In this document: positions 1-18,824 of the stretch, one piece after another
Layout: each line of letters opens with the position of its first letter
Position numbering within the stretch: the first letter of the stretch is position 1
DNA from: a virus
Length of the DNA stretch: 58,846 bases
Virus record (IMG/VR): IMGVR_UViG_3300035670_000241
Location: 1-58,846 of that record
Reading direction: 5' to 3' (one strand)
The notes under the pieces: generated by a model
The model's input: only the letters and a program-made list of their open reading frames with translations
Told to the model about the DNA's origin: nothing
The model's database searches: none
Made by a program: the position numbers and the translations under genes

Positions 1-24
1 TTGTGGTCCGGGAGGCATAGATGA
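1..24 (+). CDS. 3' end of an upstream gene (partial)
   Basis: The first bases read as the last seven codons of a frame ending in a TGA that overlaps the next ATG in an ATGA arrangement, as at most junctions here. A second frame also closes nearby, at 18-20. Too short to identify; a fibre-cassette gene is expected by position. Confidence 0.3.
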   Translation: MWSGRHR

Positions 25-431
25 GCGAGCCGTTAGTAAAACCCAATGTGGTTTTTAGCGCTTCGAATAAAGGCGGCGATTATCTACAAAAGCTGCAGGC
101 ATTAGCCGCTGGTGTGGATACCGCGTTTGAAGCATTTAACCAGCAACTGGCTGCTGCAGCGACCGCAGAACAAATCAGGCAGGCAACCGACCAGTTACGC
201 CAACAAACAGCTGCATTAGTTCAACAGGCTGAACAGAACCTACAGGCGGCCTATGCCGCCATCGGCACCGCCGGGAATACCGCGACTTATGCCGTGCAGC
301 TTCAAACAACCCGGACCATTAACGGCAAGCAGTTCAACGGCACGCAAAACGTGTCCATCGGGATTGCGGATATTCCGGGACTGACACAACGCATCGCAGA
401 CGTTGAATTATTAGCATTGGCAGGGATTTAA
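21..431 (+). CDS. tail fibre protein, cassette B (short)
   Basis: A 136-residue protein. Residues 30-80 are rich in Ala and Gln and look like a coiled coil, as in trimeric fibre shafts. Residues 100-113 carry the TINGKQFNGTQNVSI-type motif common near the ends of tail fibres. It ends in ELLALAGI, matching the EAIALAGN ending of the 51460-52149 protein, and both are followed directly by members of one family. The N-terminal adaptor region of that longer paralogue is missing, so this may be a second, distal fibre component. The fibre role is inferred from motif and position. SD GGGAGG precedes the ATG. Confidence 0.6.
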   Translation: MSEPLVKPNVVFSASNKGGDYLQKLQALAAGVDTAFEAFNQQLAAAATAEQIRQATDQLRQQTAALVQQAEQNLQAAYAAIGTAGNTATYAVQLQTTRTINGKQFNGTQNVSIGIADIPGLTQRIADVELLALAGI

Positions 432-432
432 C

Positions 433-1920: not shown

Positions 1921-2279
1921 TGAGTGAATTTATCCGTATTGACCCGCCGAAGGTTTCAGAAGCAAACCTCGGCCGCAAAATTACAGTAAACGCCCTTCGC
2001 AGCCGCTTCACACCCGCTGAATCACTGGCATTTGAAAATGCCCTGGCATCGAGTGCACAGCTGCGAGTGCTTGATAAACGTCTGGCCGCGGTCGTGGCCA
2101 CACACGTTGATTTGGACGACCCGACTTATTCTGCAGTCGCGTTGCCGGCATTAGTTGCTGCCAACATTTTGACTGCAAATCGCCCTGCGGAGATTTTGTC
2201 AGCTCCAGTGCAATGGCATGAGTTACCACCGGCCATCCAGCAGACCTTTGTCGCTGCCGGCTATCAAATCGACGTTTAA
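1920..2279 (+). CDS. small tail-module protein, cassette B (unknown)
   Basis: A 119-residue protein from a GTG overlapping the upstream stop. It is mostly helical and Ala-rich, with no recognised motif. Its slot, between the long fibre protein and the permuted NlpC/P60-like enzyme, equals that of the 147-residue protein at 54092-54535, though I see little sequence similarity between them. A structural or chaperone role is possible but not shown. Confidence 0.55.
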   Translation: MSEFIRIDPPKVSEANLGRKITVNALRSRFTPAESLAFENALASSAQLRVLDKRLAAVVATHVDLDDPTYSAVALPALVAANILTANRPAEILSAPVQWHELPPAIQQTFVAAGYQIDV

Positions 2280-2290
2280 ACAGGGTTTAA

Positions 2291-2752
2291 ATGATGGATG
2301 ACTTACAAAAAGTACAAGTAATTTTTGCGCGGGGTCACTCGGTTGGCAGTTATGCGATCCGCGTACGTTACCAGTCGCGCTGGTCCCACGTCGCCATCAT
2401 CATTGGCGATGTGGTGCACGAGGCTATCTATCCGGATGGTGTGGTGAAAACGCCGCTGCAGGAATTCAAAGACCGCTATGGCGCTGGCAACTGGGAAATC
2501 GCAACTGCATACGCCACGCCTGGCTGGCAAACTCGGGCCAATAGCTTGCTTGGTCTTGAGTACGATTTCTGGGGCGCCGTTGGCATTGGGTTTGGCACTC
2601 GCAAACTGGATAACCCGTATGCGCTGTGGTGTAGCCACCATACAGCAATCATCCTTGGCACTTTGCGCCAGGAACGCCTGAACCGTTTAGCGCCGGAGCA
2701 TTTGTGGATTGTGACACAGCCGGCAAATGACATCGCAGGAGTAGCAGCATGA
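2291..2752 (+). CDS. permuted papain-like (NlpC/P60 superfamily) hydrolase, cassette B
   Basis: A 153-residue protein with the order of a circularly permuted NlpC/P60 domain: a His in RWSHVAIIIGD (about residue 36), an acidic residue in VHEA, a TPLQEF motif, then the candidate catalytic Cys in ALWCSHH (about residue 115). Such folds act as peptidases, amidases or lipid acyl hydrolases. A virion enzyme acting on cell wall or surface is plausible. The 157-residue protein at 54532-55005 is its paralogue with the same motif order. Its stop overlaps the next ATG (ATGA). Family call is fairly sure; substrate unknown. Confidence 0.65.
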   Translation: MMDDLQKVQVIFARGHSVGSYAIRVRYQSRWSHVAIIIGDVVHEAIYPDGVVKTPLQEFKDRYGAGNWEIATAYATPGWQTRANSLLGLEYDFWGAVGIGFGTRKLDNPYALWCSHHTAIILGTLRQERLNRLAPEHLWIVTQPANDIAGVAA

Positions 2753-3438
2753 GCTTAAATTCAGCAATGGAGGCCATGCGTGGCCAGTCATATCCTGTGA
2801 TCCTTGAAACGTTGCGCCAGCAATCAGCAACTGCCATTGGCAAAATCCAAGGCAGCCAGCTGAAACTCCTGCAGTCGTTTATTGGTGGGACCGGTTTACG
2901 CAACCGACTGGCCAATGCAACACCTGAACAAGCAGCTGCAGCGGCAGCAGTGACCGAAGCCATTCAACCAGCTTATCTGGCGCGAGAAGACTCTTACAGC
3001 ATCAATCTGGCCGACCCACAAGTCGCGCAGCTACTGACCGATGCGGTCAGCGCTGGCGTCTTGGCATCAGCTGAAAAGGCCTACCTGGTGCAACTGGCTA
3101 CTTACCAGAAACCGCTTTGGCCAAGCGTGACGTTGCGTGATGTAGTGGCATATTTTGAACCTGAACTGGTCGATGTCGGTGACTGGGTCGAAGTAGAGCC
3201 AGGTGAGTCCCGCCAGTTACGCCTGAAGTTGACCACGGCCACGCCAGAACCCACTTATATAGTGGTACAGATGCAGGAAAACGACGGCGAGTGGTCTGAG
3301 TGGTATCACGTCACAGCACTGCACGGTGTCCATCAATTGCGGCCGTATACTTTTGCGGTACCAAATAACGGGCTGCCACGACGGATGCGTTGGCGTGGTG
3401 GTGAATATTGTATTGACGGCAACGTGACGGCGGTCTGA
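2749..3438 (+). CDS. tail-module protein, cassette B (paralogue of 56425-57129)
   Basis: A 229-residue protein: a helical N-terminal two thirds, then a beta-rich end with TYIVVQMQ, SEWYHVTALHG and RMRWRGG motifs. The same C-terminal block (TYIVVQAQ, SAWYHATALHG, KLRWKCD) ends the protein at 56425-57129, so this is a paralogous pair in equal slots. The Trp/Tyr-rich end could be a binding module. Each is followed at once by a ConA-like paralogue. Function not recognised. Confidence 0.6.
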   Translation: MSLNSAMEAMRGQSYPVILETLRQQSATAIGKIQGSQLKLLQSFIGGTGLRNRLANATPEQAAAAAAVTEAIQPAYLAREDSYSINLADPQVAQLLTDAVSAGVLASAEKAYLVQLATYQKPLWPSVTLRDVVAYFEPELVDVGDWVEVEPGESRQLRLKLTTATPEPTYIVVQMQENDGEWSEWYHVTALHGVHQLRPYTFAVPNNGLPRRMRWRGGEYCIDGNVTAV

Positions 3439-3439
3439 T

Positions 3440-4195
3440 ATGCCTCATGCAGTGACCACTCAGGGCCAAGGTACCGACGCCTTTATTTCGATACCTTCGT
3501 TCTCAATCAACGCTTTTGCGAACACGGACGTTAGTGGGTTCGAAATTGACATTAAACCATTGGCTGGTAACGCTAGCGGTTTTGTAAATTTACTTGGCAC
3601 GACTACGACTAACGTCACTGCGCTGCGTATAAATGTCTCAACACAAACGCTGCAATGGCGATACAGCAGCACTGTTTATCTGGAAAGTGCTGCCGGAACA
3701 GCTCCACTCAATGAACGCCATAGATACGGTGCTGAGTGGGAAGAGTCTACACAATCGTTGTACTTAACAAAAAACGGTGTTCGTATTGCCGGGCCTTATG
3801 TTGCTCCCGCCGCAAACTCACTAATCACAAACATAACGTGGAATCAGATAGGAAAGGTTGGATCTTCAGCTCCCGGCACTGCGGCATTTGAGCTGTACGG
3901 TATTCGAACCTACGGCAACAACTGCACGTACCAATCTCAATGGGATGACACTGGTGCGCCGGGAGCAGGGACATCATGGGTGAACGATTCTGCTGATAGA
4001 AATTTAACGTTAACCAGCTTCACTGGAGCGGCGGACAGCTGGTGGGTCTTTTATCCTGGCTTATCGCCTGGTACGCAAATCAAACGATTTGACGGTGCTG
4101 CGTTTGTTTCGAAACCTATTAAGCGTTGGGATGGCTCGGCTTTCATAGATGTGACGCTAAAGCGCTGGAACGGTAGTGCGTTTGTTGATGTTTGA
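3440..4195 (+). CDS. LamG/ConA-like tail adhesin, cassette B
   Basis: A 251-residue protein resembling a jelly-roll lectin fold (alternating strands, FEIDIKPL, YGAEWEES, FELYGIRTYG). It is a close paralogue of residues 1-220 of the 57129-58490 protein. A 164-bp stretch (3731-3894) is base-for-base identical to 57420-57583, while the flanks differ. The C-terminus carries three 13-residue repeats starting KRFDG, KRWDG and KRWNG (4082-4192), a form common at phage adhesin tips, whereas the paralogue ends in a different repeat type. Inferred role: host-surface recognition. Confidence 0.65.
   Translation: MPHAVTTQGQGTDAFISIPSFSINAFANTDVSGFEIDIKPLAGNASGFVNLLGTTTTNVTALRINVSTQTLQWRYSSTVYLESAAGTAPLNERHRYGAEWEESTQSLYLTKNGVRIAGPYVAPAANSLITNITWNQIGKVGSSAPGTAAFELYGIRTYGNNCTYQSQWDDTGAPGAGTSWVNDSADRNLTLTSFTGAADSWWVFYPGLSPGTQIKRFDGAAFVSKPIKRWDGSAFIDVTLKRWNGSAFVDV
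3731..3894. repeat. 164-bp exact repeat, copy 1
   Basis: Identical at every base to 57420-57583, in the same orientation and frame inside the two ConA-like adhesin genes. Identity stops abruptly on both sides (TACGGT versus TACGGC before, GAGCTG versus GAGCTA after) while the flanking proteins remain recognisably homologous. This is the footprint of recent recombination or gene conversion. Confidence 0.97.
4082..4192 (+). repeat. 39-bp (13-residue) tandem repeat at adhesin C-terminus
   Basis: Three units start at 4082, 4121 and 4160, each encoding K-R-[FW]-[DN]-G-[AS]-A-F plus a short linker. DNA differs between units while the residue pattern is kept. The paralogue at 57129 lacks it. Confidence 0.85.
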
Positions 4196-4289
4196 TGGTT
4201 GAACAAACCGATGAATAGCTTATTATTCACCCATACTGAGCGTACTCCTGCCTAATCAATTTTTCAGCACTCTGCTGAGGTGACAATTC

Positions 4290-5816
4290 ATGCAAACTAC
4301 CAACACCAGCCCGGTGAAAGCCGCGGTTGATATTGCCTATTTGCCGCCGGAAAAGGCGGGTAATAAGCGCATTTTTCCTGTGCCGGCAGAAGGTGCGCCG
4401 GTTCAGCGTACGCAGCCGGTGACTGCGCTGGACCAATCCGGCCAGACTGTTCAGGCTAAAGCGTCAAACACTGCGCCGGAATATTCGCAGGGCGCATCTG
4501 CCTCAGTGCTACCTGGTGATGAAAATCCGGATAAGCCGGGCTTTGGGTTCAATGGTGGCAGCGGTGGCCTGCTGCAAGCTCTGGCGCAACAGCAGCAATC
4601 AGCTGGTGGCGCACAGATAGCGGTACCGAATCCAACTGCGAGCCAGCCGGTACCACCAATCCAGCAGACAACTGCTGCGCCGGCACTGGCGAAAACCACG
4701 ACAAGCGCTGCAACACCGCCAGTGTTTGAGTACAAGCCGGTTGGCGCTGATTTACTGAAGAACGCCCCGACAATGAACGTGCCCGCTGCTGCAACAGTGC
4801 AAGGTACTTTCACCAAGGACGGTTATACCGGTGTTCAGGGCAATACAAATTTCAGCTATACGCCCGGTGCGGAATCGTTGGTTGAAAATCGCGTGGTTGG
4901 ATTACTGGATCCAAACAGCCCTATTATGCGAAAAGCTGCTGCAGAAGCTGCGCAATATTCGGCCAGTCGTGGCCTGCAGTCATCGAGCATTGGCAACGAA
5001 GTGGCGCTGTCGACCATGATAGATAAGGCGCTGCCAATCGCTACGCAGGATGCAAACACCTACAACCAGGCACAGCAGCTTGGTTGGCAGCAGTCATGGC
5101 AATCCGGCGAAAACAATTTGGGCCGCACGCATGATGCGTCGATGGCTGACAAGCAGGGGCAGTACCAGACCAACCTGCAAAACACCCAGATTGCCGCGAG
5201 CGCTGCAGAGAATGCCGCCAATCGCCAGATGCAGGCTGAGCTGCAAAAGCTTCAGTACGCGCAGCAGGCAGGCTTGCTGGATGCTCAGGGCCAGCAGCGG
5301 ATGCAGGAGCTTATTTTCCAAGTCCAGAGCAATGCTTACCAGCAGGAGCGTGGCGCGCAGCTACAAACCGAGCGGGATAAGATTTTGCAGGATATGTCGA
5401 ACCAGACCATGGATAAGCAGTATCTGCAGCAGCTGGAATTAACCCGAGTCCAGTATGACCAGCAAGATAAGCAGTTCATGGCTCAGCTTGAGGCAGGCAA
5501 ACAGGCTGAGTATCGCAACGCGGTATCGACTGCCTACAACAACTATCTGCAGCAGGTTGGCGCTATTCAGGCAGATCCAAACATGACCGCCGAGCAGAAA
5601 GCCGCTGGCGTTGCGTACATGCAGTCTCAGCTGGATGCACAGCGTAAGTCTTTGGAAACGCTGTATCTGGTCACCGGCACAGCCACAGGCTCTGGCTCGG
5701 GTTCAACAACGAACCCACCAACCGGCACCAGCAATCCGAACAACCCGCCCATAACCACGAACCCGGGCAATGGCGGTAGCACTGGCGGCTGGAAAAACGG
5801 GACTCAGGAACCATGA
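4290..5816 (+). CDS. putative internal virion (ejection) protein, Gln-rich coiled coil
   Basis: A 508-residue protein. Residues 1-160 are low-complexity Pro/Ala/Gln/Thr; residues 190-240 hold a helical segment with LLDPNSPIMRKAAAEAAQ; residues 270-430 are Gln-rich coiled coil; the last 40 residues are Gly/Asn/Thr/Pro linker. It heads a tight run of genes leading to the giant polyvalent protein, the usual place of internal core proteins in podoviruses. SD GAGGTG precedes the ATG. No catalytic motif seen. The 94-bp gap upstream holds only a weak TGAATA/TATTCA dyad. Confidence 0.55.
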   Translation: MQTTNTSPVKAAVDIAYLPPEKAGNKRIFPVPAEGAPVQRTQPVTALDQSGQTVQAKASNTAPEYSQGASASVLPGDENPDKPGFGFNGGSGGLLQALAQQQQSAGGAQIAVPNPTASQPVPPIQQTTAAPALAKTTTSAATPPVFEYKPVGADLLKNAPTMNVPAAATVQGTFTKDGYTGVQGNTNFSYTPGAESLVENRVVGLLDPNSPIMRKAAAEAAQYSASRGLQSSSIGNEVALSTMIDKALPIATQDANTYNQAQQLGWQQSWQSGENNLGRTHDASMADKQGQYQTNLQNTQIAASAAENAANRQMQAELQKLQYAQQAGLLDAQGQQRMQELIFQVQSNAYQQERGAQLQTERDKILQDMSNQTMDKQYLQQLELTRVQYDQQDKQFMAQLEAGKQAEYRNAVSTAYNNYLQQVGAIQADPNMTAEQKAAGVAYMQSQLDAQRKSLETLYLVTGTATGSGSGSTTNPPTGTSNPNNPPITTNPGNGGSTGGWKNGTQEP

Positions 5817-6271
5817 TCCGCTTTGGTACCCATGCCGACATTCCGGCCATGCTGGCCATTGGCCGGCAGGTGATAGCTGATGCGAAAACCCTTAACTGCG
5901 AATTGGACACAGAGCTTGCGGCTAAAACTATCCGGCAAGCACTCAATCACCGAAAGCACGCAGTATTTGTCGCAGAGAAAGCCGGCCACGTTGTCGGCTT
6001 TTTTATTGCCATGCAGGACCAGTTCTGGTTTTCAAAAACTCACTATGCAACGGATCTGGCGTTTTGTGTCTCGCCGGAACACCGTGACCAAGCCGTCTGG
6101 CTTTTACGCCGTTTTATCCGCTGGTGCCAGGCCAATGGCATTGCGCACATTCAGCTCGGCCTGAGTACGGGCCTCGACACTGAAGGCCGCACCGGTCAGC
6201 TCTATGAGGCGCACGGCCTGAAGTTAGCCGGCGGCATCTATTCAACAACATTCGATTCGGAGGCCACATGA
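5813..6271 (+). CDS. GNAT-family N-acetyltransferase
   Basis: A 152-residue protein with GNAT layout: an N-terminal IRFGTHADIPAM strand-helix, central beta strands (AVFVAEKAGHVVGFFIAMQ), the motif A region (ATDLAFCVSPEHRDQAVWLLRRFIRW) and a late GQLYEAHGLKLAGGIYST strand. The Q/R-x-x-G-x-G/A signature is poor (HRDQAV), so acetyl-CoA binding is uncertain. ATGA overlaps couple it to both neighbours, putative internal virion genes, so it may modify a virion or host protein. The substrate is not inferable. Confidence 0.7.
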   Translation: MIRFGTHADIPAMLAIGRQVIADAKTLNCELDTELAAKTIRQALNHRKHAVFVAEKAGHVVGFFIAMQDQFWFSKTHYATDLAFCVSPEHRDQAVWLLRRFIRWCQANGIAHIQLGLSTGLDTEGRTGQLYEAHGLKLAGGIYSTTFDSEAT

Positions 6272-7047
6272 GCGGTCTGGTCAAAGGCGTGAAAAAAGCC
6301 TTCAAGTCAGTCACTAACGTAGTGAAAAAGGTCGTGAAGTCCAAAGTGTTTAAAGTCGTGGCAGTTGCTGCGCTGGCTTACTTTGGCGGTGCGGCAATCA
6401 TGTCGATGGCCGGTGGAGGCACGGCCTCAGCTGGCATTGGCTCAGCCTGGGGAGGCTTGCAGGGGGCCGGCAGTGCGCTGGCATCCGGCAATGTCGGCGG
6501 GGCATTTTCGGCGCTAAGCTCTGGCTTTACCAGCGGTGCAACAGCAGGCGCGGCAGGCACATTCGCCACAGGTCAGGCAGCGGCACAAGCGGCCATCACC
6601 GGCCAAACTGCTGCTATCGGGGCCACGTCAGGCGCTTATACCGGCAAAGCCATGGAAACATTCGTGGCCAATGGCGGTGGTGCAGTTCAGGCCGCAACGC
6701 CTGTCGCAACCCAAGCAGCCACCGCGGCAACCAGCTCACCCGGCTTACTCGCCAACATTGGTGACGCCACCAAAGCCGCAATGGTAACAAGCGGCGTGAA
6801 CATGGCCGGCCAGATGATCCAAGGATACTCACAGCAGAAGCAGGCTGAAGAGCAGGCAGCAAACCGTGATTACTATGGCGTGAACGGCAAGGGCCAAAAA
6901 ACCACCCTGCCGGGCGTCGGCCTTTTAGATCCTTCCAACATCATGCCGCAAAACCCAGTGCCACAGCTGCAGCCTTTAAAGTCACTCGATGATCTGATTG
7001 CCAAACAGCAGCAAACCGTCAACACCTACCAAAAGTGGAGCGTATAA
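6268..7047 (+). CDS. putative internal virion protein with membrane segment
   Basis: A 259-residue protein: Lys-rich N-terminus (residues 5-30), a hydrophobic helix at about 31-50 (VFKVVAVAALAYFGGAAI), then long Gly/Ala/Ser-rich sequence to about residue 170 and a Gln-rich end. This cationic-plus-hydrophobic layout suits a protein inserted into or passed through the cell envelope during DNA ejection. It lies in the run of genes before the polyvalent protein. Function inferred from layout and position only. Confidence 0.55.
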   Translation: MSGLVKGVKKAFKSVTNVVKKVVKSKVFKVVAVAALAYFGGAAIMSMAGGGTASAGIGSAWGGLQGAGSALASGNVGGAFSALSSGFTSGATAGAAGTFATGQAAAQAAITGQTAAIGATSGAYTGKAMETFVANGGGAVQAATPVATQAATAATSSPGLLANIGDATKAAMVTSGVNMAGQMIQGYSQQKQAEEQAANRDYYGVNGKGQKTTLPGVGLLDPSNIMPQNPVPQLQPLKSLDDLIAKQQQTVNTYQKWSV

Positions 7048-7050
7048 GCC

Positions 7051-7554
7051 GTGGATGAAACGATGCAAAAAGATGAAGTGCAGGCGACGCCAGAAGAAGA
7101 GGCGCAACTGGAACAGGCTTTCGATGCTGCCATCAAGGTGATCCACGCACCTGGTAAAGCCGGTGACAATATCGCAAGCATGGTCCTCGATGCTCAGCAG
7201 GTTCAGCAGGGTATCGGTCAGGCCGTGGCCACTGTGGTTATCACTGTCGAAAAGCAAATGAAGCTGACAGAAGATGTAAAGCTGGCGCTGGCCGAGCGCG
7301 TCACTGATGAACTGGTAGCTCTGGCGATTAAGGCCGGTGCATTGGCCGAAGACGAAGTAACCGACCAAATGACCGACGCGCTGGCCAGCCATGCAATGAG
7401 CACTTATCTCACGCTCAAAGAGCAGCTTGGTGAGCTCGACCAAAACGAGCTTTCCGCCAATGTGCAGGAAGCTCAGGCATTCATGGGCCAGCAACAGAAA
7501 CCAGCGGCAGAACCGGCTAAATCTGGTGGCTTGCTGCAGCGTGCGCGGGGGTAA
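7051..7554 (+). CDS. hypothetical acidic helical protein (virion region)
   Basis: A 167-residue protein read from GTG at 7051; an in-frame ATG four codons later (7063) is the alternative. It is very acidic at the start (DEVQATPEEEAQLEQAF), helical throughout, and ends in a KSGGLLQRARG tail. No family recognised. Tight packing with both neighbours suggests a virion or assembly role. Confidence 0.55.
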   Translation: MDETMQKDEVQATPEEEAQLEQAFDAAIKVIHAPGKAGDNIASMVLDAQQVQQGIGQAVATVVITVEKQMKLTEDVKLALAERVTDELVALAIKAGALAEDEVTDQMTDALASHAMSTYLTLKEQLGELDQNELSANVQEAQAFMGQQQKPAAEPAKSGGLLQRARG

Positions 7555-7556
7555 TC

Positions 7557-8522
7557 ATGGCAAGTTATGGTTTACTGGCTGGCTTTGGCCGCGGCTTGAG
7601 TCAAGGGGCTGAGCTGCTTAGTCGTGGCATGGCCGAGGACCGCGAGGCCGAGCGCCAGCGGTTGCGCGAAGAGTCGATGGCAGCACGCTGGAAGCGGCAG
7701 GAAGAGCGCGAGGATGCCCGGTACAACGACGAGAAGAAGTACCGTGACGAGCGCAGCAAGGTCGAGGATAAACGATACAACGAGCAGAAGGCTGCACAAG
7801 CTGCAGCGGCGACACAGGCTCAGAACAATGCTGACCGCTCTTACAACCTGCAGGAACGTCAGATGACATCGCAGGAAGAAGCCCGCCGCGTTGCCCGCAT
7901 CGAAGAAACACTGAATCGGATCCAGACCAAATTCAGCCGCGAAGGTGAGCAGATTGACCGTAAGTATGACCGGCTGATTGATAAAGCTGAAACGCCTGAA
8001 GAAAAAGAGGAGCTGTATCAGCGCCGGGATGCTGAGCATGAAGCCCTTGGTACAAAGATGGAAGGTGAAATGCTGCCGGCGCTCAAGTCATTCGGTGATG
8101 GCCTGAAAGGTACATCATATGCCTCATACATCGATGTTCTGGCCGAAATGGATAAACCAAAACCAGATCCCAAGCCGGAGAACCCACAGCCGGCACCTGC
8201 AGCATTTGATCGTGGCGCAGCGGTTGGCACTGTAATGCAACAGCCTGGTGGCCAAGCATCGCCGGCTAGTGCAGCTGCGCCGAAACCGGGGCTTTTAAAT
8301 CCAGGATTCTTTAACGGATTTATCGACAGCGCTCATGGCGATATCAACCCGCTGCAGATTGACGAAACTAATATCACTCCAGCGCAGCTTGCAACCACTC
8401 GTACCGGTCAGGCGCTCGGCTATTTCCCCGGTAAATTTGTTGACGCAGTTCAGCAGGTTGGACAGGCCGCACAGCCAGCGTGGAATTATTTGAACAAGCC
8501 AATGCCTCAGAGCCGCAAATAA
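7557..8522 (+). CDS. putative internal virion protein, charged coiled coil
   Basis: A 321-residue protein: Gly-rich N-terminus (LLAGFGRGLSQGAELLSRG), a long Arg/Glu-rich coiled coil at about residues 25-170, then a Pro/Ala linker and a short C-terminal domain. Part of the putative ejection-protein set. A terminator hairpin begins 12 bases before the end of its coding region, so its 3' end forms one arm. Confidence 0.55.
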   Translation: MASYGLLAGFGRGLSQGAELLSRGMAEDREAERQRLREESMAARWKRQEEREDARYNDEKKYRDERSKVEDKRYNEQKAAQAAAATQAQNNADRSYNLQERQMTSQEEARRVARIEETLNRIQTKFSREGEQIDRKYDRLIDKAETPEEKEELYQRRDAEHEALGTKMEGEMLPALKSFGDGLKGTSYASYIDVLAEMDKPKPDPKPENPQPAPAAFDRGAAVGTVMQQPGGQASPASAAAPKPGLLNPGFFNGFIDSAHGDINPLQIDETNITPAQLATTRTGQALGYFPGKFVDAVQQVGQAAQPAWNYLNKPMPQSRK

Positions 8523-8533
8523 GCGGCTTTTTT
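8511..8533 (+). terminator. Rho-independent terminator before the giant gene
   Basis: Stem AGCCGC (8511-8516) and GCGGCT (8523-8528), 6-nt loop AAATAA, then five T. The loop includes the stop codon of the 7557-8522 gene. It should lower transcription of the 8-kb gene relative to its neighbours unless antitermination is active. Confidence 0.8.
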
Positions 8534-8558
8534 GTTTCTATATCCAAAGGATCCGCCA

Positions 8559-11500
8559 ATGGTTCGCCTTTATAACTACACGCCATCCAGTCAGCTATAC
8601 GGTTCAATTAAACCTGCAGAAACAGTAAAATCATCTGAGCCCGGACTACTCAGCAACATGGGCCGCGCAGCCGGTTCAGGCGCTTTGTCAGGTGTTGGCG
8701 GTATCTTTGATTTTGTCGGTGCAGATGGCATAGCCAAACAGTTCTATGGCTGGTCTGACGATGCACGCCAGAGCATGTCGCAGGAAGCGCAAGCGGATAT
8801 GGCAAAGCCATTTTTCAGCGAGAACGACCAAGGCGATATCCAGCTGGGCGAAGGTCTGACCGATTTAGATACCTGGCTACTGACCATGGCCAATGTGGCT
8901 GGCCAGTTTGCACCAACAGCTATTCCAGGTGCGGGCCTTGCTGGTACCGCAACCAAAGCATTAAAGCTCGGTGAAACCGGCGCCAAAATTGCGACCGCTG
9001 TTGGTATGGGCGCTACAGGTGGTGCATCTGCTACCGGCCAAGGCATGGAGCAGGCGCGCCAAGAGTGGCTGCAAATGCCGGATGAGCTCAAACTGCAATC
9101 AGACCTGTTCAAAAACACTATCCGCGAAATGAAGCAGGCCAAGCCTGAACTCGATGGTGAAGCGCTGTGGACTGAGGCTGAAAACAATGTGGCTGAACGC
9201 CTGGCAGCTGAGGTGCAGACAGATCCGAAAGTGTTACTGGCAAACTTTGCTGGCTCAGCGATTGCGGATCCAATCATCGGCCGGGCATTAACCGGTGCGC
9301 GGCTGGCGAAGTCTGGCGCGTTGCGCTCAGCACTCAAAGGCTTTGCCATCGAGGGCGGCACTGAAGCAGCTCAGGCTGGTGTGCAGGAATACGGCATCAA
9401 TCAGGCGCTGTCTCAGGTCGATGGCCGCGACCCGATGGATGGTGTTGCGGTTGCGGCGCTTAATGAAGGTGTGGCAGGCGGCACGCTCGGCGCTGCAGCT
9501 GGTGGTGTAGGTGGCTTATTAAATCGCAAGCAGGAAGAACCTGTGCGCGATCCGGAAGCTGACGCTATCCGCGATAAGAACCCAGACTTGGCAAGCGCAT
9601 TCGATGGCATGGCGCAGTCAGCCGCGCAGCGCGAAGCTGATTTACAAAGCATCATTGGCGGCATGCCGGCTATCAGCCAGCCAGTGCTTGAAGGTGAGCT
9701 GCTGGATCCGGAGCAGGCACCAGGCCCGAACTATAATCCGAATCAGATTGGCATGCAGCCGCGCATTGGTGGCCCGACAATCCCCCGTATTGAACAGAAA
9801 GACATTATCTTTGCTGCCGATGGCCGCACTGAAGCCGAGCGCAATCCAGCAATGGAAGGTGAGTGGTTAAGCCCAGAGCAGAGAGCCAATGCAGCTGCAG
9901 GCTTTATTGAGAATGCACCTATTGATCTGGAATCTGAGCAGGTCAAACAGGCAAAAGCTGAAATGGAGCGCATGCGCAATCAGCCGCGCCAAATCACTGA
10001 TAAAAATATCATCTTCACCGGTGATGGTCGGCCGCAGCAGGCGGCGCAGGAGTTTACCGATAACCTGCAGCGCCAGGCTAATCAAGCCGCATCAGTTCCG
10101 CGCCTGCCGCAAAAGGACATCATTTTTGCCGGTGATCAATCCGGTGTTCGCGTCAAAGGAAACGGGCAGGTATATCAGTCAGCTCGTGAAGCGATGACCA
10201 GCAAACAGGCCCGCGCAATGAAGCGCAGCGGCACGCCAGTAGAAGCCGTTCCATTTGGTGATGGCTGGGGCTGGCGCGTGAAGGAATCGCAGCCAGAGCA
10301 AATGCAGCAGCCTGATATTCAGCCAGAGCAAACGGTTCAGCCGGTTGAGCCTGCACCTATTCAGTTGATGAAAAGCGGCCGACCATTCAGCACTCAAGCC
10401 ATGATGCTCAAAAGTGCCAGCTACAAAGAAGCTGCCGCCACAGGCGCAGAGCTGGAACCAGTTAAAGTCGAAGGTGGCTATGGTTTCCGGGTGAAAGTAG
10501 CTCCAGCTGCCGACTTGTCTGGTGGTGCGATTAATGATGAGTGGACCGCGTTTGCAGATGATTCCGGTACCTTAAAAATTCCCCGGGCAGAGATGCCACA
10601 AATTAAAGCTGAGCATCGTGGCGCAATGACACAGTTCTTAAAGGCGCGCGGAGTCAGCCATGAACAAGACACCGTTCCGGCCGCAGGACTGAAACCAACG
10701 CAGGCAGAGTTTTCTCCATCGAAGGTTGCCAAGGCAATGGAATTCGACGGCGGCGATCGGTCAATCCTTGTTTCGTCAGACGGCTATGTTCTGGATGGTC
10801 ATCATCAATGGCTGGCTAAGCGTGAGCGAGGGGAAGAAGTTGATATCATCCGTTTTGATGCCCCAATCGCTGAGCTGGTGAAACAGGCTCATGAATTCCC
10901 AAGCTCGACTGTTGCCGATGGTGCTAATATCGAAAGTAACATCGAATCCGGAACCAACAATCCAGATGACACAATCAAAAACCAAGAAGGCAGCGGCGCC
11001 CAGCAAGGCGGATTGTTCACCGCAGGCAATGCAGGCGCTTCTGAAAGTGGGACGCAATCTGGCCAAGAGCGACAAGGATCTAGTGCTGAACGCTCTAATG
11101 GACCAGATCCAGAGCAACCAGAAAAGCCAGCAGTAACAACTGAACCAGCTACCCAGACCCCGGCCGATGCCGGGGTTTCTGTTTCTGAGCCATTGGAACG
11201 TATTGACGACTTTGGCGAGAAGCTTGGTGGTGCTCGCAAAGATGTTTGGGCCGGCTTCTCTGAGGCAGTAAGCGGCGAAGTTGATACAAGAGAGCTGCCG
11301 CTGTCTAAATCATTCCCTGAGCCAGACTATGTGAAGATGGCTGCAGATGGCGTATCAATGGAAACGCTGGCCATCATTGCAGCTATGCGCTCTGAAATTC
11401 CAGCTAAGCCGCGTGTCTCATACAAAGTCAGGCGCTGGGCTGAGAAAGTTGATGTATTGCGTAACTTTGCCCGTGATCTGATTAGCGGCGAACTGACGCC

Positions 11501-14500
11501 GGACCAAGTGATTGCTGCTATGTCCAAAAGTGGCGGCGAACTTCAGGCGATGGCTGATGCTATCCCTGCAATCGCTCAGGCCAATCCTGAAACTATCAAG
11601 CTTGCTGCAAAGTACCGGCTTGGCTCGGGTTCATTCAGCATGTTCCGTGGCAAGCAGTACAGCCCATCTAAAACCTTTTACTACCCACAAAATGGCGGTA
11701 CAGAAATTCTTGATCTGGCCAGTCCAGATAAACAGGGCGCTCTGGATAACCTGGTGAAACTGATCAAGGCTGAAGCTGCAGCAAATCCTGACACTGCAGG
11801 GCAAAAGCAAAGCAAGATCTCAATCTATAGCGACCGCTATACGAAGCAAATCTACCTTGGATGGGCAGGTGGCAGCGGCGTGCTGCGGATCCAAGATTTC
11901 GCTACGGTCAACGAAGCGCGTGAGTATCTAAAATCAAACCGCGCTGATGTCGAAGCCAAACTGAAGCAACTTAAGCAAGTGCCTGAAATGCGCCGGCCAG
12001 AGAATCGTAAGCGGGTTGGACCTCCGCACTATGCAGGCAGCATAACTCCTGCAATTTTTGCAGATACCTTTGGTTTTAGAGGCGTTGAGTTTGGTAATTG
12101 GGTAGAGCAGGGGAAGCGGCAGCGAGATCTTAACGAAGCCTATGATGCGCTCATGGATCTTGCCGATGTACTTGGCGTCCCGCCAAAAGCACTGGCTTTA
12201 AATGGCGAGCTTGGCATGGCATTCGGTGCTCGCGGAAAAGGCGCTGCAACAACTATTAAAGCTGCTGCTCACTACGAGCCGTCTTATGTGGCAATCAATT
12301 TAACCAAAGAGTCAGGGGCCGGTTCGCTGGCACATGAATGGTGGCACGCGGTTGATAACTACTTTGCGCGACTGTCTGGTAATCCAAACAGCTTTGTGAC
12401 CGAAGGCGGCAACATCCGTGGTGGTGACTTGCGGCAAGAAGTACGCGATGCTTTCACAGCACTCATTTTGGCTATTCGAAAAACCAAGATGTTCCAGCGT
12501 GCATCAACGCTTGATTCGCGGCGTAGTAAGCCTTACTGGTCGTCAGAAATCGAAGCATCAGCCAGATCCTTTGAAACATTCATCATTGCAGAACTGGAAG
12601 CTAAAGGGTTTAGCAATGACTACCTGGCAAACGTAGTTGATCCGGAAGTGTGGGGCGCAGTCGAATCAGCAGAGCAGACTTACCCGTACCCAACCAAGGC
12701 TGAGCAGGAGATCATCAATCCAGCTTTCAGGGCATTCTTTGATACGCTGCAGACCAAAGAGACCGACAAAGGTGTGATGCTGTTCAGCAAACAAAACACC
12801 ATCAAAGCTAAGCCGGCGCGCGGCGTGAACGCCAAACTGGCTAAACAGATGGTGTCCAACATCATGCAGCGCCTGAACGGTGCGGCCGGCATTAAAGTTG
12901 TCGTGCTGGAGACTCAGGCCGAAGCCGAAAAACTCTGGCAGATGTCACTGTCTGGCGACCTGGTACGTGGTGCCTACAACCGTGCAACCAATACCGCCTA
13001 TGTGATTGCTGAAAACGTGAAGTCACTGGATGAATTGCGGGAAGTGGTGGCGCACGAAGTCATTGGCCATGGTGGCCTGCAGAATGTGATCAGCAAAGCC
13101 GATTACACCGCATTCATTGACCGCCTGAAACAGACTCGGAACAACCGAGCCTTTGCAAAGCAGTGGGTCCAGATTGATAACGACTATGACGGATTTAGCG
13201 AAAACGACAAAGCCGAGGAACTGTTCGCCTACTTTGTTCAGAATAAGCCAGTCACCGGCCCTGTGAAGTTCTGGTGGAATGCACTCAAACGGTTCCTGCA
13301 CAAAGCATTGGTATCAGTCGGCCTGGCGAAAGCCGGGGATCCGGATGTTGAGGCTATGCAGGATATGCTGGATTCGATTAGTGCCGGATTTATGTTTAGT
13401 CGGAATCAGTCCGATTCAACATCGGAACGCGCAGTTTTATTTAGTAGGGTGCCTGATTCAGCTCCAATCGTTGAACTAGGCAATTCAACAATCAACATTG
13501 GAACACTAAAAGAGATGGTTGTTGCTGCTCGCGAATATGCAAAAGCGCATTTAGCAGGAAAGACATTCATCAATAAAGATACTGGCCATGCCGTAAGTGT
13601 TTCTATGACGGGCGTACGACACACTTTATCAGGTGCGCAAGCAGATCTAATTTCATCAATCGAAGCAATTCCCGAACTCATTGAAAGGTCGATTTATATC
13701 GGCTCGGAACCTGACGCAAAAAGAGCAGAGTCTGGACTAATCTTCCACTACTACGCCGCGAAACTAAGCGTGGATTCTCGAGTTCATGATGTGATTACGG
13801 TTGTGCGGGAGGCTGAGGATGGTAAACGGTACTACGACCATTCGTTTGAAAGAAAAACGGACGCTCAATCTGCCTTGCCGTCAAATGCAGGGAATCAAGC
13901 GTCCGAATCCAACGATGCAAATGCACCGTCGGATGAAAGTATAAATCATGAACAGACCGGCTACAAGTTCAGCAAAGCACGCACCACTGAACAAGCCGAT
14001 GCGCTGGACAAACTGGGCCTTGGTGAAGAAGATGCAGAAACAATAGCCGAGCAAGCCAAGCGCCGGGCCAATGAAACTGTCGAAACGCTGAAAAGCAGCT
14101 CATTCTGGAAGCGACTGAATGAAGGTATCTTCGATGGCCTTGCCGGTATCAAACAGGCTGAGGAAGCCGCTGGCATCACGGATCCGAACAAACAGGGCTA
14201 TGTGTCTGCTCGCCTTGCGTCCGGCCTGTCCGATATTCTGCACGGCGTTTTCCACTACGGCGCACCAGTCTGGAAAGATGGCGTTGTGCAGCGTAAGGCT
14301 GATACCAAAGGCCTCCTGGAAGTTTTCGGCATGCTGGGCGATGACCTGAACGAATGGCTTGCATGGATGGGTGCTAATCGAGCAGAGCGCTTAATGGCTG
14401 AAGGCCGCGAGAACAATCTGAGTCAGGCAGATATCGATGAACTCAAAGCGATGGCTGCTGGCAAAGAAGATCTGTTTGAACAGGTCCGGCAGGAATACAA

Positions 14501-16571
14501 CAAGATCAACAGCGCTATCATCGACCTGGCTGAAGAGGCTGGACTTATCAGTGCAGAGCAGCGCGGCGGCTTTGATGAAGAGTGGTACGTGCCATTTTTC
14601 CGCAACATGGAAAACGAAGTGGATCCGGAAATGTCCGGAATTGCAGCCATGGTGCATGGCCCGCGCAGCCGCAAAGGTATTGCCGGCCAGTCAGCGCAAA
14701 TCAAAGAGCTGAAAGGTGGGCGCCAGTCGACCAAAGACTTGCTTGAAAACATCATCGCCAGACAGTCGACCATGATTGATGCAGCCATCAAGAACAAAGC
14801 GATGGCGGAAGTGGTGAGCAATCTGGAAGGCACGCCGTTTATGCAGGCAGTTGATAGCCCCGACATTGCGGCGCTAAGTCAGACTGAGCTGAACCTGCTG
14901 CAGAAAGTGAAGGTGATGCGCAACGGCAAAGCGGAGGCCTATACAGTCACGGATCCGGCGCTGCTGCGCGGCCTGCTGCAAATCCACACCATCGGCAACC
15001 AGTCTCTGTTTAACCGCATGGCCCGCAGTGCTAAGCGATTCCTGACCGCTGGTATCACATTATCGCCTGACTTCATCATCAAGAACTTTGTGCGCGATGC
15101 GGCACACGCCTGGATGATCAACAAAGACGGTTTCCGCTTTGGCGCTGACTCAGTTGCCGGACTTCGCAAAGCTTTTGCCGAGGATGAGGCGTACCGAGAT
15201 CTGATTTTCTCTGGTGCTGCATTCCAAGGTGGTTATGTGCATGGCGCAGACCCGGAGGCTGCAGCGCAGCAGGTTCGCCGGGCACTTCGCAGTAAAGGTC
15301 TGGGCGAGGCTGATATCCAGTCATACATGGACAGCCTGATCACAAAAGGTGGTCAGCTGCTGGAAGCGTACCGCACTGCGTCAGATAAGGTGGAGAACGC
15401 CAACCGGCTGAGCACGTATGAAGCTGCATTGGCCAGCGGTAAGTCGCGCCGGCAGGCTGCGTATGAGGCGAAAGACCTGATGGACTATTCGCTCAAAGGC
15501 AACTTTGCACTGATTGGCACCATGATTGATATGCTGCCGTTCTTCAATGCCCGGCTGCAGGGCATGAGCAAACTGGTCCGAGCCATGAAAGCCGGTGATG
15601 GTGACCGCGTACTGAAAGTGCTGAGCGCCAATCTGGCAATGAAGGGTTTGAAGGTTGCCGCATTCAGCCTGGCACTGGCTGCAATGAATGACGACGACGA
15701 GCGTTATCAGGAATTGCCGGACTGGGATAAAGACGCAAACTGGCACTTCTTTATTGGTGATGAACACTTCCGGATCCCGAAACCTTTCGAGCTAGGTATT
15801 CTGTTCGGCACCATGCCAGAACGGATGTTCCACTATGCGGCCGGCAGTCAGCCTGGCAGTGACTTAGGCAAAGCCGCGGCGCATGCTGTTTGGAATACGC
15901 TGGCACTAAACCCAATCCCGCAGCTGGCACTGCCAGTAGTTGAAGTGATGACGAACAAGTCATTCTTCAAAGGCAGTCAGATTGAAGGTATGGGCGATGC
16001 ACAGCGTAAGCCAGAGGACCGGTATAACGCCTACACCAGCGAAACGGCCAAACAGATTGGCGCTGCCTTTGGTGTTAGCCCGAAAATGGTCGAGCACTTG
16101 ATCCTCGGTTACACCGGCACCCTGGGTGGTTATATCCTTGGCATGTCCGACATTGCCGCGCGGCAGATGCTGGGCATTGAAGCTGCTGATACACCAATCA
16201 GCCGTTATCCGGTGATTAAAGCGTTCTATCAGGGCGATGCACCGAAAACCGCTACCAAGTTCCAGGATGAATTTTACAAGGCACTGGAGGAAGCCACCGA
16301 AGCGCACGGCAGTTATAAGCGTGCAGTGGAGGAAGGTAATGTGGTGCGGCAGCAAGATCTGAAGGAATCGGAGTCATTGGCACTTGGCGCCCGGGTTGCG
16401 CTGAACCGGATCCAACGTCGATTGAGTGAACTGAATAAGCAGGCAGAGCTGGTGAACAATAACCAAAGCCTGAGCGGTACGCAAAAGCGGCAGAAATTGG
16501 ACGACATTACTAAGCGCAAAAACGAGCTGTATCAAAACGCCTATCTGCGGTACAAGCTGGGTGAGTGGTGA
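8559..16571 (+). CDS. giant polyvalent protein (2,670 aa): ParB-like, zincin-like, BECR-nuclease-like, LPD38-like regions
   Basis: ATG 8559 is preferred over an in-frame TTG at 8532 because AAAGGA lies 8 bases upstream. Regions: Gly/Ala-rich helices at about 105-180; three IIF-x-[AG]D units at about 415, 482 and 518; a ParB-like segment with LDGHHQW at 745-751; a region ending GSLAHEWWHAVDNYF, with HExxH at H1259-H1263, resembling what I recall as LPD1; a second metal-site-like HEVIGH at 1499-1504 with unusual HExxxH spacing; a phage BECR-type nuclease-like region at about 1660-1760 (VRHTLS H1688, HYYAAKL H1730); an LPD38-like region from about 2150; a charged helical tail. Polyvalent proteins are delivered with phage DNA and counter host defences. 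Domain names come from memory of motifs. Confidence 0.8.
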   Translation: MVRLYNYTPSSQLYGSIKPAETVKSSEPGLLSNMGRAAGSGALSGVGGIFDFVGADGIAKQFYGWSDDARQSMSQEAQADMAKPFFSENDQGDIQLGEGLTDLDTWLLTMANVAGQFAPTAIPGAGLAGTATKALKLGETGAKIATAVGMGATGGASATGQGMEQARQEWLQMPDELKLQSDLFKNTIREMKQAKPELDGEALWTEAENNVAERLAAEVQTDPKVLLANFAGSAIADPIIGRALTGARLAKSGALRSALKGFAIEGGTEAAQAGVQEYGINQALSQVDGRDPMDGVAVAALNEGVAGGTLGAAAGGVGGLLNRKQEEPVRDPEADAIRDKNPDLASAFDGMAQSAAQREADLQSIIGGMPAISQPVLEGELLDPEQAPGPNYNPNQIGMQPRIGGPTIPRIEQKDIIFAADGRTEAERNPAMEGEWLSPEQRANAAAGFIENAPIDLESEQVKQAKAEMERMRNQPRQITDKNIIFTGDGRPQQAAQEFTDNLQRQANQAASVPRLPQKDIIFAGDQSGVRVKGNGQVYQSAREAMTSKQARAMKRSGTPVEAVPFGDGWGWRVKESQPEQMQQPDIQPEQTVQPVEPAPIQLMKSGRPFSTQAMMLKSASYKEAAATGAELEPVKVEGGYGFRVKVAPAADLSGGAINDEWTAFADDSGTLKIPRAEMPQIKAEHRGAMTQFLKARGVSHEQDTVPAAGLKPTQAEFSPSKVAKAMEFDGGDRSILVSSDGYVLDGHHQWLAKRERGEEVDIIRFDAPIAELVKQAHEFPSSTVADGANIESNIESGTNNPDDTIKNQEGSGAQQGGLFTAGNAGASESGTQSGQERQGSSAERSNGPDPEQPEKPAVTTEPATQTPADAGVSVSEPLERIDDFGEKLGGARKDVWAGFSEAVSGEVDTRELPLSKSFPEPDYVKMAADGVSMETLAIIAAMRSEIPAKPRVSYKVRRWAEKVDVLRNFARDLISGELTPDQVIAAMSKSGGELQAMADAIPAIAQANPETIKLAAKYRLGSGSFSMFRGKQYSPSKTFYYPQNGGTEILDLASPDKQGALDNLVKLIKAEAAANPDTAGQKQSKISIYSDRYTKQIYLGWAGGSGVLRIQDFATVNEAREYLKSNRADVEAKLKQLKQVPEMRRPENRKRVGPPHYAGSITPAIFADTFGFRGVEFGNWVEQGKRQRDLNEAYDALMDLADVLGVPPKALALNGELGMAFGARGKGAATTIKAAAHYEPSYVAINLTKESGAGSLAHEWWHAVDNYFARLSGNPNSFVTEGGNIRGGDLRQEVRDAFTALILAIRKTKMFQRASTLDSRRSKPYWSSEIEASARSFETFIIAELEAKGFSNDYLANVVDPEVWGAVESAEQTYPYPTKAEQEIINPAFRAFFDTLQTKETDKGVMLFSKQNTIKAKPARGVNAKLAKQMVSNIMQRLNGAAGIKVVVLETQAEAEKLWQMSLSGDLVRGAYNRATNTAYVIAENVKSLDELREVVAHEVIGHGGLQNVISKADYTAFIDRLKQTRNNRAFAKQWVQIDNDYDGFSENDKAEELFAYFVQNKPVTGPVKFWWNALKRFLHKALVSVGLAKAGDPDVEAMQDMLDSISAGFMFSRNQSDSTSERAVLFSRVPDSAPIVELGNSTINIGTLKEMVVAAREYAKAHLAGKTFINKDTGHAVSVSMTGVRHTLSGAQADLISSIEAIPELIERSIYIGSEPDAKRAESGLIFHYYAAKLSVDSRVHDVITVVREAEDGKRYYDHSFERKTDAQSALPSNAGNQASESNDANAPSDESINHEQTGYKFSKARTTEQADALDKLGLGEEDAETIAEQAKRRANETVETLKSSSFWKRLNEGIFDGLAGIKQAEEAAGITDPNKQGYVSARLASGLSDILHGVFHYGAPVWKDGVVQRKADTKGLLEVFGMLGDDLNEWLAWMGANRAERLMAEGRENNLSQADIDELKAMAAGKEDLFEQVRQEYNKINSAIIDLAEEAGLISAEQRGGFDEEWYVPFFRNMENEVDPEMSGIAAMVHGPRSRKGIAGQSAQIKELKGGRQSTKDLLENIIARQSTMIDAAIKNKAMAEVVSNLEGTPFMQAVDSPDIAALSQTELNLLQKVKVMRNGKAEAYTVTDPALLRGLLQIHTIGNQSLFNRMARSAKRFLTAGITLSPDFIIKNFVRDAAHAWMINKDGFRFGADSVAGLRKAFAEDEAYRDLIFSGAAFQGGYVHGADPEAAAQQVRRALRSKGLGEADIQSYMDSLITKGGQLLEAYRTASDKVENANRLSTYEAALASGKSRRQAAYEAKDLMDYSLKGNFALIGTMIDMLPFFNARLQGMSKLVRAMKAGDGDRVLKVLSANLAMKGLKVAAFSLALAAMNDDDERYQELPDWDKDANWHFFIGDEHFRIPKPFELGILFGTMPERMFHYAAGSQPGSDLGKAAAHAVWNTLALNPIPQLALPVVEVMTNKSFFKGSQIEGMGDAQRKPEDRYNAYTSETAKQIGAAFGVSPKMVEHLILGYTGTLGGYILGMSDIAARQMLGIEAADTPISRYPVIKAFYQGDAPKTATKFQDEFYKALEEATEAHGSYKRAVEEGNVVRQQDLKESESLALGARVALNRIQRRLSELNKQAELVNNNQSLSGTQKRQKLDDITKRKNELYQNAYLRYKLGEW

Positions 16572-17585: not shown

Positions 17586-18824
17586 ATGGCGCTATCTGAT
17601 ACCTGGCTGAAGGCAAACCACAGCAAACCGCGCGATAGCGTGCTTGAGAAAAGTGATCGTGATGGTCTATCTGTCCGAGTGTCAGAGAAGGGCAAGATTA
17701 AGTTTCAGATGCGCTTCCGGTTTGCCGGCAAAAACCAGCGCTGTGATATTGGCACCTATCCACTCATGGGCCTGGCTGATGCGCGCAAAGAGTGTCAGCG
17801 GTATCGCGCTGAACTGGAGCAAGGTAAAGATCCGCGGCTGGTGAAAAAGCTGGAGCGTGAAGCGGTCCTATATGCCGGCACCTTTGAAGATATGTTCAAG
17901 CAGTGGCACTCGAGCACAAAAGCAGAGCAGGTATCTGGCGCCGAAATTCTGGCGACTTTTGAGAAGCATGTATTCCCGAGCTTTGGCCGGTTCCCAGCAC
18001 CAGATTTGACCATGCACGTATGGCTCGATTTTCTGGAGAAGCAAACCAAGGCACGGCCTTATATTGCACAGCGCATTCTGACGAACCTGAAAATGGTTTA
18101 TCGCTGGGCAGTAAAACGCCAGCTCACCGAACACAACCCAGTGGCCGACATATTCAGTGGCGAAGATCTGAAGATTGAGAAATCAGAAACCACCCGCGTA
18201 TTAAGTGCGGATGAAATCAAGCTGGTGTATGAGGCGCTTGAGAACAGTACCATTTGGCCGAAGAACAAGATCCTGATCGAGCTGTGTCTGTTCTACGGGT
18301 GCCGGGTCAGTGAACTGCGACTGGCTGAGCGTGATCACTTCGACTTTAAAAAGATGGTTTGGACTGTTCCGGTAGAGAACCACAAAATGGGCGACCAGAT
18401 TAAAAAGGCATTGGTCCGGCCTATCATTCCAGAAGTGGTACCGCTGCTGCAAACATTAATGGATATGACGGCCGGCACATATCTTTTCCCGCACCGGGAT
18501 GAAGATAGGCCAGTCAGTGACAGAGCCCACATTAAAATACCTTCTCAGCTCACTACCTGGCTGCGTGAAAACCGAAAAGTCAAAATCGACAGCTGGAGTG
18601 TCCATGATTTACGCCGCACAGCCCGGACAAACTGGAGTAGCCTGACCGATAGCGATATCGCTGAAATTATGCTGGGCCACAAGTTGCCCGGTGTAAAAGC
18701 TGTGTATGACCATCACGACTATTTGCCAAGGCAGCAAGCTGCTTATAAAGCTTGGTGGGAACGGCTGCAGCGGATCCGGAACGGCGAGCAGAATGATAAC
18801 GTGGTTGAGATGCGACGCAGTTAA
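17586..18824 (+). CDS. int: tyrosine site-specific integrase (P4-type)
   Basis: 412 residues, the usual length for P4-like integrases. The N-terminus has the arm-binding DUF4102-type pattern (DGLSVRVSEKGKIKFQMRFR, IGTYPLMGLADAR). The catalytic domain shows R240 in GCRVSE, H340-x-x-R343 in SVHDLRRT, H365 in LGHKLPG and the nucleophile Y374 in AVYDHH, giving a complete R-H-R-H-Y set. It recombines attP with a chromosomal attB; P4-type enzymes often use tRNA genes. A GAGGG lies 10 bases upstream of the ATG. Transcribed away from the virion genes toward the IrrE cassette. Confidence 0.95.
   Translation: MALSDTWLKANHSKPRDSVLEKSDRDGLSVRVSEKGKIKFQMRFRFAGKNQRCDIGTYPLMGLADARKECQRYRAELEQGKDPRLVKKLEREAVLYAGTFEDMFKQWHSSTKAEQVSGAEILATFEKHVFPSFGRFPAPDLTMHVWLDFLEKQTKARPYIAQRILTNLKMVYRWAVKRQLTEHNPVADIFSGEDLKIEKSETTRVLSADEIKLVYEALENSTIWPKNKILIELCLFYGCRVSELRLAERDHFDFKKMVWTVPVENHKMGDQIKKALVRPIIPEVVPLLQTLMDMTAGTYLFPHRDEDRPVSDRAHIKIPSQLTTWLRENRKVKIDSWSVHDLRRTARTNWSSLTDSDIAEIMLGHKLPGVKAVYDHHDYLPRQQAAYKAWWERLQRIRNGEQNDNVVEMRRS

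What the first reader, a model, noticed from the sequence alone, without database searches (positions are those of the whole stretch)
8559..16571. 2,670-residue polyvalent protein with several distinct enzymatic-looking regions
One gene holds a ParB-like DGHHQW segment, an HExxH zincin-like site (H1259), a second HEVIGH site with non-canonical spacing (H1499-H1504), a BECR-nuclease-like region and an LPD38-like end, plus three short IIF-x-GD units of unknown meaning. It follows putative ejection proteins, so it may enter the cell with the DNA and blunt defences at once. The combination and order of regions may be new; the IIF-GD units and region 830-1160 are unexplained.
Basis: partly seen in the sequence, partly recalled or inferred. 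Interest (0 to 1): 0.7.

Follow-up and report, generated by a model that had tools for sequence, protein, structure and literature searches.

The report
Phage entry protein with cut-site joints
This giant protein of a temperate short-tailed phage is a known type of multi-part protein probably carried inside the virus particle, and its parts, which relatives swap freely, are joined at recurring short peptides that look like places where a metal-dependent protease built into the protein cuts it apart.

Summary
The gene is real: 8559-16571, 2670 aa, with AAAGGA upstream. It is a 'polyvalent protein' (Iyer 2017) of a temperate podovirus. Pfam finds LPD5, LPD1, LPD3 and LPD38; NCBIfam finds CLCA_X over the HEWWH region. 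HEVIGH is the HExxxH metallopeptidase variant already described. The ParB-like segment is conserved in about 440 phage records, but its fold is unproved. The 'BECR' region is LPD3; a link to MuF-C/PBECR was not supported. Both ends are near-constant carriers, while the middle modules are exchanged, even against a relative 97% identical in its C-terminus. A homologue, JC1 gp69, is abundant in purified virions.

New here: all four FS[RK] peptides lie at module joints. In 50 metallopeptidase clusters excluding the window's own, such peptides pile up in the flanks (28 seen, 2.6 expected) and not inside the domain (2 seen, 3 expected). Similar peaks occur after CLCA_X, before MuF-C and before the C-terminal carrier. 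The peptide changes with the metallopeptidase: [FY]S[RK] with HExxxH, [FY]SV with HExFH, [FY]N[RKL] with EExxxH. Best reading: the embedded metallopeptidase cuts the carrier and cargo apart at these joints. Cleavage itself is unproved.

The parts
8559..16571 (+). giant polyvalent gene, 2670 aa
   Evidence: open frame, AAAGGA upstream of ATG
8559..9524 (+). N-terminal carrier module, residues 1-322, Gly/Ala-rich, near-constant in relatives
   Evidence: retained in 46 of the distinct long relatives
9804..9824 (+). IIF-GD unit 1 (IIFAADG, residues 416-422) in the linker after the N-terminal module
   Evidence: conserved in relatives at the same place
10008..10028 (+). IIF-GD unit 2 (IIFTGDG, residues 484-490)
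10119..10139 (+). IIF-GD unit 3 (IIFAGDQ, residues 521-527)
10521..10934 (+). ParB-like module (residues 655-792), invariant DGHHQ
   Evidence: AF2 local pLDDT mostly 60-93; alignment A6; 440 phage records
10935..11252 (+). disordered linker (residues 793-898)
   Evidence: AF2 pLDDT <50
11253..12050 (+). folded region 899-1164 with Pfam LPD5 (1030-1170)
   Evidence: E 4.9e-22
12051..12773 (+). CLCA_X-like zincin 1 (residues 1165-1405; HEWWH 1259-1263; LPD1 1318-1400)
   Evidence: NCBIfam NF041907 E 4e-39, below its curated cut-off; LPD1 E 3.8e-16
12783..12791 (+). joint peptide FSK (1409-1411), zincin 1 | metallopeptidase 2
12798..13376 (+). metallopeptidase 2 (residues 1414-1606): HEVIGH 1499-1504 plus conserved Glu 1553/1554
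   Evidence: alignment A4: E89, H93, E143 invariant, H88 and E142 nearly so
13395..13403 (+). joint peptide FSR (1613-1615), after metallopeptidase 2
13440..13448 (+). joint peptide FSR (1628-1630), before LPD3
13470..13865 (+). LPD3 module (residues 1638-1769)
   Evidence: Pfam E 7.6e-25
13968..13976 (+). joint peptide FSK (1804-1806), before the C-terminal carrier
13977..16568 (+). C-terminal carrier module (residues 1807-2670), mostly helical, contains Pfam LPD38 (2380-2552)
   Evidence: AF2 pLDDT 74, pTM 0.71; TM about 0.7-0.8 to many phage LPD38 proteins
5813..8522 (+). upstream late genes: GNAT acetyltransferase, then three probable virion/ejection proteins, present beside relatives

Best explanation
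It is a virion-carried polyvalent protein. The near-constant N- and C-terminal modules act as the carrier, packing the protein in the head and taking it into the cell with the DNA (inferred). The modules between them are exchangeable cargo: a ParB-like domain, LPD5 plus a CLCA_X-like zincin, and LPD3. The resident HExxxH metallopeptidase (1414-1606) cuts the chain at the FS[RK] joints at 1409, 1613, 1628 and 1804, freeing cargo from carrier during head maturation or after entry. Shown: the architecture, the cargo exchange, and the placement of the joint peptides and their change with metallopeptidase type. Inferred: packing and entry (by homology), metal binding and cleavage.
For: Carrier and cargo: relatives keep the ends and swap the middle. 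L002 is 97% identical in the C-terminus and about 89% in the other shared parts, yet lacks LPD3, has MuF_C inserted and carries ddrB-ParB. Rheinheimera L170 carries LPD3 before, not after, the metallopeptidase. Virion: JC1 gp69. Joints: 4 of 4 FS[RK] lie outside modules, 0 of 20,000 shuffles. In 50 other metallopeptidase clusters (<60% identity): 18 upstream against 1.35 expected, 10 downstream against 1.24, 2 inside against 3.05. FS is the top dipeptide without prior choice. There are peaks after CLCA_X (12 against 0.41) and in the 25 residues before the carrier. Covariation: third residue R/K to V/I is 34:4 for HExxxH and 2:10 for HExFH, p 5e-6. In L020 and L205, with EExxxH, the joints read FN[RKL] or YNK. 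The metallopeptidase is in 23 of 29 carrier clusters. Self-processing by such domains was proposed before, without sites.
Against: No cleavage data. Presence of the metallopeptidase does not significantly predict a joint before the carrier (p 0.39). About a sixth of intact-motif clusters have no [FY]S in their flanks. Phage P1 DdrB, the one processed example, has no clear site giving its 76 kDa form. Clusters are still related, so shuffle and Fisher values overstate significance; the HExFH and EExxxH sets are only 5 and 2 proteins. No zincin fold was confirmed against the PDB.
Confidence: 0.5

Rival explanations
1. The protein enters uncut as one multi-effector chain; the joint peptides are not cut but serve as docking strands, hinges or unfolding handles needed for passage through the narrow portal.
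For: N4 virion RNA polymerase, with such a metallopeptidase, is packaged unprocessed (PMC5512222). AF2 draws residues 1406-1410 and 1626-1630 as strands.
Against: A hinge or docking peptide need not change with the active-site type of the metallopeptidase.
Confidence: 0.25
2. The joint peptides are edges of conserved domains or recombination-prone linkers that spread with module shuffling and have no function of their own.
For: Flanks of clusters are partly homologous; several joints, for example zincin 1 to metallopeptidase 2, are inherited together.
Against: The same peptide follows and precedes unrelated modules (CLCA_X, metallopeptidase, MuF-C, LPD3, carrier; in L021, an ART-like stretch read by eye), and alternatives such as [FY]T[RK] or [FY]A[RK] are not enriched.
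Confidence: 0.15
3. A different protease, such as a prohead maturation or host protease, cuts at the joints; the internal metallopeptidase acts on host proteins.
For: P1 DarA is thought to be processed and the P1 capsid protein is cut, most likely by the prohead protease (PMC9024508).
Against: Covariation of the peptide with the internal metallopeptidase type. No prohead protease was recognised among the late genes scanned here, though the scan was not exhaustive.
Confidence: 0.1

Closest known systems
Large polyvalent proteins of phages (Iyer et al. 2017, PMC5512222)
   Same: Several unlike modules in one chain, LPD1/LPD3/LPD5/LPD38, zincin-like metallopeptidases including HExxxH, late-gene setting
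   Different: The joint peptides are not mentioned there (text search); the exact module set was not seen elsewhere in my set
Burkholderia phage JC1 gp69, the Bcep22-type DarB-like protein (PMC9144972)
   Same: Shared ParB-like domain, LPD3, LPD38 and C-terminus; GNAT and virion genes upstream; found in virions
   Different: 4515 aa, with transglycosylase, methylase and helicase; HEAFH metallopeptidase and [FY]SV joints
Giant protein of 933W-like E. coli podophages (phi367, 2422 aa)
   Same: LPD5-LPD1-metallopeptidase-cargo-LPD38 order, YSR at the same joints
   Different: MuF_C in place of LPD3, no ParB-like module detected, HEIIHH motif
Phage P1 Dar system (DarB, DdrB)
   Same: Large head-packed anti-restriction proteins; DdrB has a ParB-like domain and a metallopeptidase
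   Different: No LPD38 carrier match; different ParB family; no clear joint peptides

Membership tests
Polyvalent protein (Iyer 2017) | Two or more biochemically unlike domains in one chain | tested here: met
   LPD5, LPD1, LPD3, LPD38 and CLCA_X profiles plus a conserved ParB-like module
Polyvalent protein (Iyer 2017) | Phage late/virion gene neighbourhood | tested here: met
   Follows GNAT and probable ejection genes; integrase just downstream; head genes in the same contig
Polyvalent protein (Iyer 2017) | Carried in the virion and injected | not testable with these tools
   Only by homology to JC1 gp69, found in purified virions
LPD38 (PF18857) | Profile match above curated cut-off | tested here: met
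   162 bits against 27
LPD3 (PF18798) | Profile match above curated cut-off | tested here: met
   87.8 bits against 27
PBECR/MuF-C nuclease | Profile match or profile-profile similarity of residues 1640-1770 | tested here: not met
   No Pfam match; hhalign probability 2% against a shallow MuF-C alignment
ddrB-ParB (PF18763) | Profile match | tested here: not met
   No match in the window protein, though L002 has one
ParB/sulfiredoxin superfamily | Fold and active-site pocket | tested here: inconclusive
   Conserved DGHHQ module, AF2 alpha/beta, no significant PDB match
Zincin metallopeptidase (second site) | HExxxH plus downstream Glu conserved in relatives | tested here: met
   A4: E89, H93, E143 invariant; H88, E142 nearly invariant
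Zincin metallopeptidase (second site) | Zincin fold and zinc binding | tested here: inconclusive
   AF2 domain, no PDB match; zinc binding not testable here
CLCA_X (NF041907) | Match above curated cut-off of 260 bits | tested here: not met
   134.6 bits over 17-246 of 250 positions, E 4e-39: related, not a member

The most novel reading that the evidence does not exclude
Phage polyvalent proteins carry a cut-site code: each module is bounded by [FY]-[SN]-x peptides recognised by the metallopeptidase in the same chain, and the code changes with the enzyme (S-R/K for HExxxH, S-V for HExFH, N-R/K/L for EExxxH). One carrier can thus deliver any cargo and release it.
Probability: 0.45. Interest if true: 0.75.

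Novelty: new member of a known kind. Interest (0 to 1): 0.55.

Why it matters
Self-processing of polyvalent proteins was proposed in 2017 without sites. Exact predicted sites, with natural variants of enzyme and peptide, make that question directly testable by N-terminal proteomics or a single expressed fragment. If true, it explains how phages exchange effectors freely on a common carrier, gives a motif for finding module borders in thousands of unannotated giant phage proteins, and offers a release tag for engineered protein delivery.

Tried and rejected
Carrier against PDB: nothing significant; the best hit, the phiM1 ejectosome, has E 0.07 and TM 0.12. Model of 640-1765 against PDB: top hits not significant. 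Profile searches of PDB sequences with the ParB-like, metallopeptidase and carrier alignments: none. LPD3 as PBECR: rejected on present data. Joint peptide as P1 DdrB site: no support. Presence of metallopeptidase against joint before carrier: not significant. IIF units as DNA repeats: only unrelated short repeats were found in that DNA. PADLOC: none. More EExxxH, HExFH and P1-type relatives: few or too close. Papers on Bcep22 (PMC3187461) and the P1 Dar system (PMC6011833) are not held.

Full report
WHAT IS THERE. The frame at 8559-16571 encodes 2670 aa; AAAGGA precedes the ATG and an intrinsic-terminator-like stem lies at 8509-8530. The window is a virus record of 58,846 bases. It has terminase, a portal / T7-type head-tail adaptor and major head genes, an integrase just downstream at 17586-18824, and a GNAT and probable ejection proteins just upstream. 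It is therefore a temperate podovirus. The closest relatives of the carrier module in named genomes are prophages of Rheinheimera (79%), Arsukibacterium and Shewanella.

MODULES. Pfam: LPD5 1030-1170, LPD1 1318-1400, LPD3 1650-1759, LPD38 2380-2552. NCBIfam CLCA_X covers 1165-1398 (E 4e-39, below its cut-off), so HEWWH and LPD1 are parts of one domain; its HEWWHALD and an invariant upstream His (alignment A1) fit the phage metallopeptidase clade described in PMC5512222. The second metallopeptidase, 1414-1606, has HEVIGH and a conserved Glu pair about 50 residues on (A4); this HExxxH type is also described there. AlphaFold gave for 640-1765 a folded ParB-like domain (655-786), a disordered stretch (787-898), a folded LPD5/CLCA_X block and a folded metallopeptidase; LPD3 was not modelled well. 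The whole C-terminus 1804-2670 is one mostly helical module (pLDDT 74, pTM 0.71) that matches many phage LPD38 proteins at TM about 0.7-0.8 and 16-28% identity, but no solved structure. Pfam's LPD38 is thus only a fifth of a carrier of about 850 residues.

THE PARB-LIKE SEGMENT. Residues 664-792 are conserved, with invariant DGHHQ (A6), in 440 phage records, among them 'unknown structural protein' of Dickeya phage XF4 and 'virion-associated protein' of Stenotrophomonas phage Marzo. It does not match ddrB-ParB and no solved structure matches, so ParB membership stays open.

VIRION EVIDENCE. JC1 gp69 (4515 aa) shares the ParB-like segment (49.6% identity, 1.5e-30), the C-terminus (E 1.8e-17), LPD3 and LPD38 with this protein. 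It gave 51 unique peptides from CsCl-purified virions (PMC9144972). P1 DarB is a precedent for head packing (PMC9024508).

EXCHANGE OF CARGO. Among 79 viral loci the N-terminus, metallopeptidase 2 and C-terminus recur while the rest varies. In a set of 16 full-length members, some also carry ddrB-ParB, MuF_C, InPase, helicase, methylase, RadC or ART domains. L002 is 97% identical in the C-terminus and about 89% in the other shared parts, yet differs by three modules. Only the window protein had all of ParB-like, CLCA_X, metallopeptidase 2, LPD3 and carrier.

THE JOINTS. In the window protein all four FS[RK] are between modules (1409, 1613, 1628, 1804). None of 20,000 shuffles had four outside modules (module borders were set by me). 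The motif was then fixed and tested on clusters excluding the window's own. First set of 23 metallopeptidase clusters: 21 in flanks against 2.1 expected; FS is the top of all dipeptides (z 8.6). Larger set of 50: upstream 18 against 1.35, downstream 10 against 1.24, inside 2 against 3.05. After CLCA_X, 12 against 0.41; before MuF-C, 7 of the wider motif against 1.06. Before the carrier, 10 against 1.07, with 11 wider motifs in the last 25 residues and 0-4 in nearby bins. Control motifs ([FY]T[RK], [FY]A[RK], [FY]S[DE], [LI]S[RK]) are not enriched.

COVARIATION. In HExxxH flanks the residue after [FY]S is R or K 34 times and V or I 4 times; in five HExFH proteins (JC1, Itty13, L251-253) it is 2 and 10 (p 5e-6). 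In L020 and L205 the active site reads EELxxH and the joints read FNL, FNR, FNK or YNK at the domain edges. These sets are small and related, so the p-value overstates the strength. But a plain linker has no reason to follow the enzyme type.

MECHANISM. Shown: modules, exchange, joints, covariation. Inferred from homology: packing and entry. Inferred from pattern: the metallopeptidase cuts at the joints. Iyer et al. proposed such processing but gave no sites. Thermolysin-like enzymes prefer a large hydrophobic residue after the cut (my knowledge), so a cut before F/Y is plausible. Against: P1 DdrB has no fitting site, and N4 polymerase is packaged uncut.

IIF-GD UNITS. They lie in the linker between the N-terminal carrier and the cargo, as KD[IV]IFxGD, in 14 of 46 relatives and nowhere else in these proteins. 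They may be a second kind of joint; untested.

VERDICT. The protein is a new member of a known kind. The joint peptides and their change with the enzyme are the part worth following. I found no description of them in the papers that could be searched; that library is incomplete.

Noticed in passing
L084 (Pseudomonas phage Itty13, MW460249), 1-12337, - strand: The record annotates three hypothetical genes on the + strand over an open frame of 4112 codons on the - strand that is a homologue of the window protein: a likely annotation error.
   Followed up: partly
window 8509-8530: Terminator-like stem directly before the giant gene, after the preceding virion gene; its expression may be set separately.
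   Followed up: no
L021 13251-17039 and L031 8873-12550: The C-terminal carrier lies in its own overlapping open frame, split from the cargo; sequencing error, decay or real gene fission.
   Followed up: partly
L020, L050, L129, L021, L026, L181: Two copies of the HExxxH-type metallopeptidase domain in one chain; in L020 both copies read EELxxH.
   Followed up: partly
L009 18800-19699 and L032 18239-19138: A separate 299 aa gene related to the CLCA_X-like module downstream of the giant gene.
   Followed up: no
L032, L056, L065, L077: The giant gene is broken into several frames in these prophages or contigs.
   Followed up: no
window 10155-10298 and 10362-10508: Two diverged copies of a small unit of about 48 aa ending in G-W/Y-G-W/F-RVK, between the IIF units and the ParB-like module.
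   Followed up: no
L082 (E. coli phage phi367) 11275-18543: The giant gene is annotated only as a hypothetical protein although it matches LPD5, LPD1, MuF_C and LPD38.
   Followed up: yes
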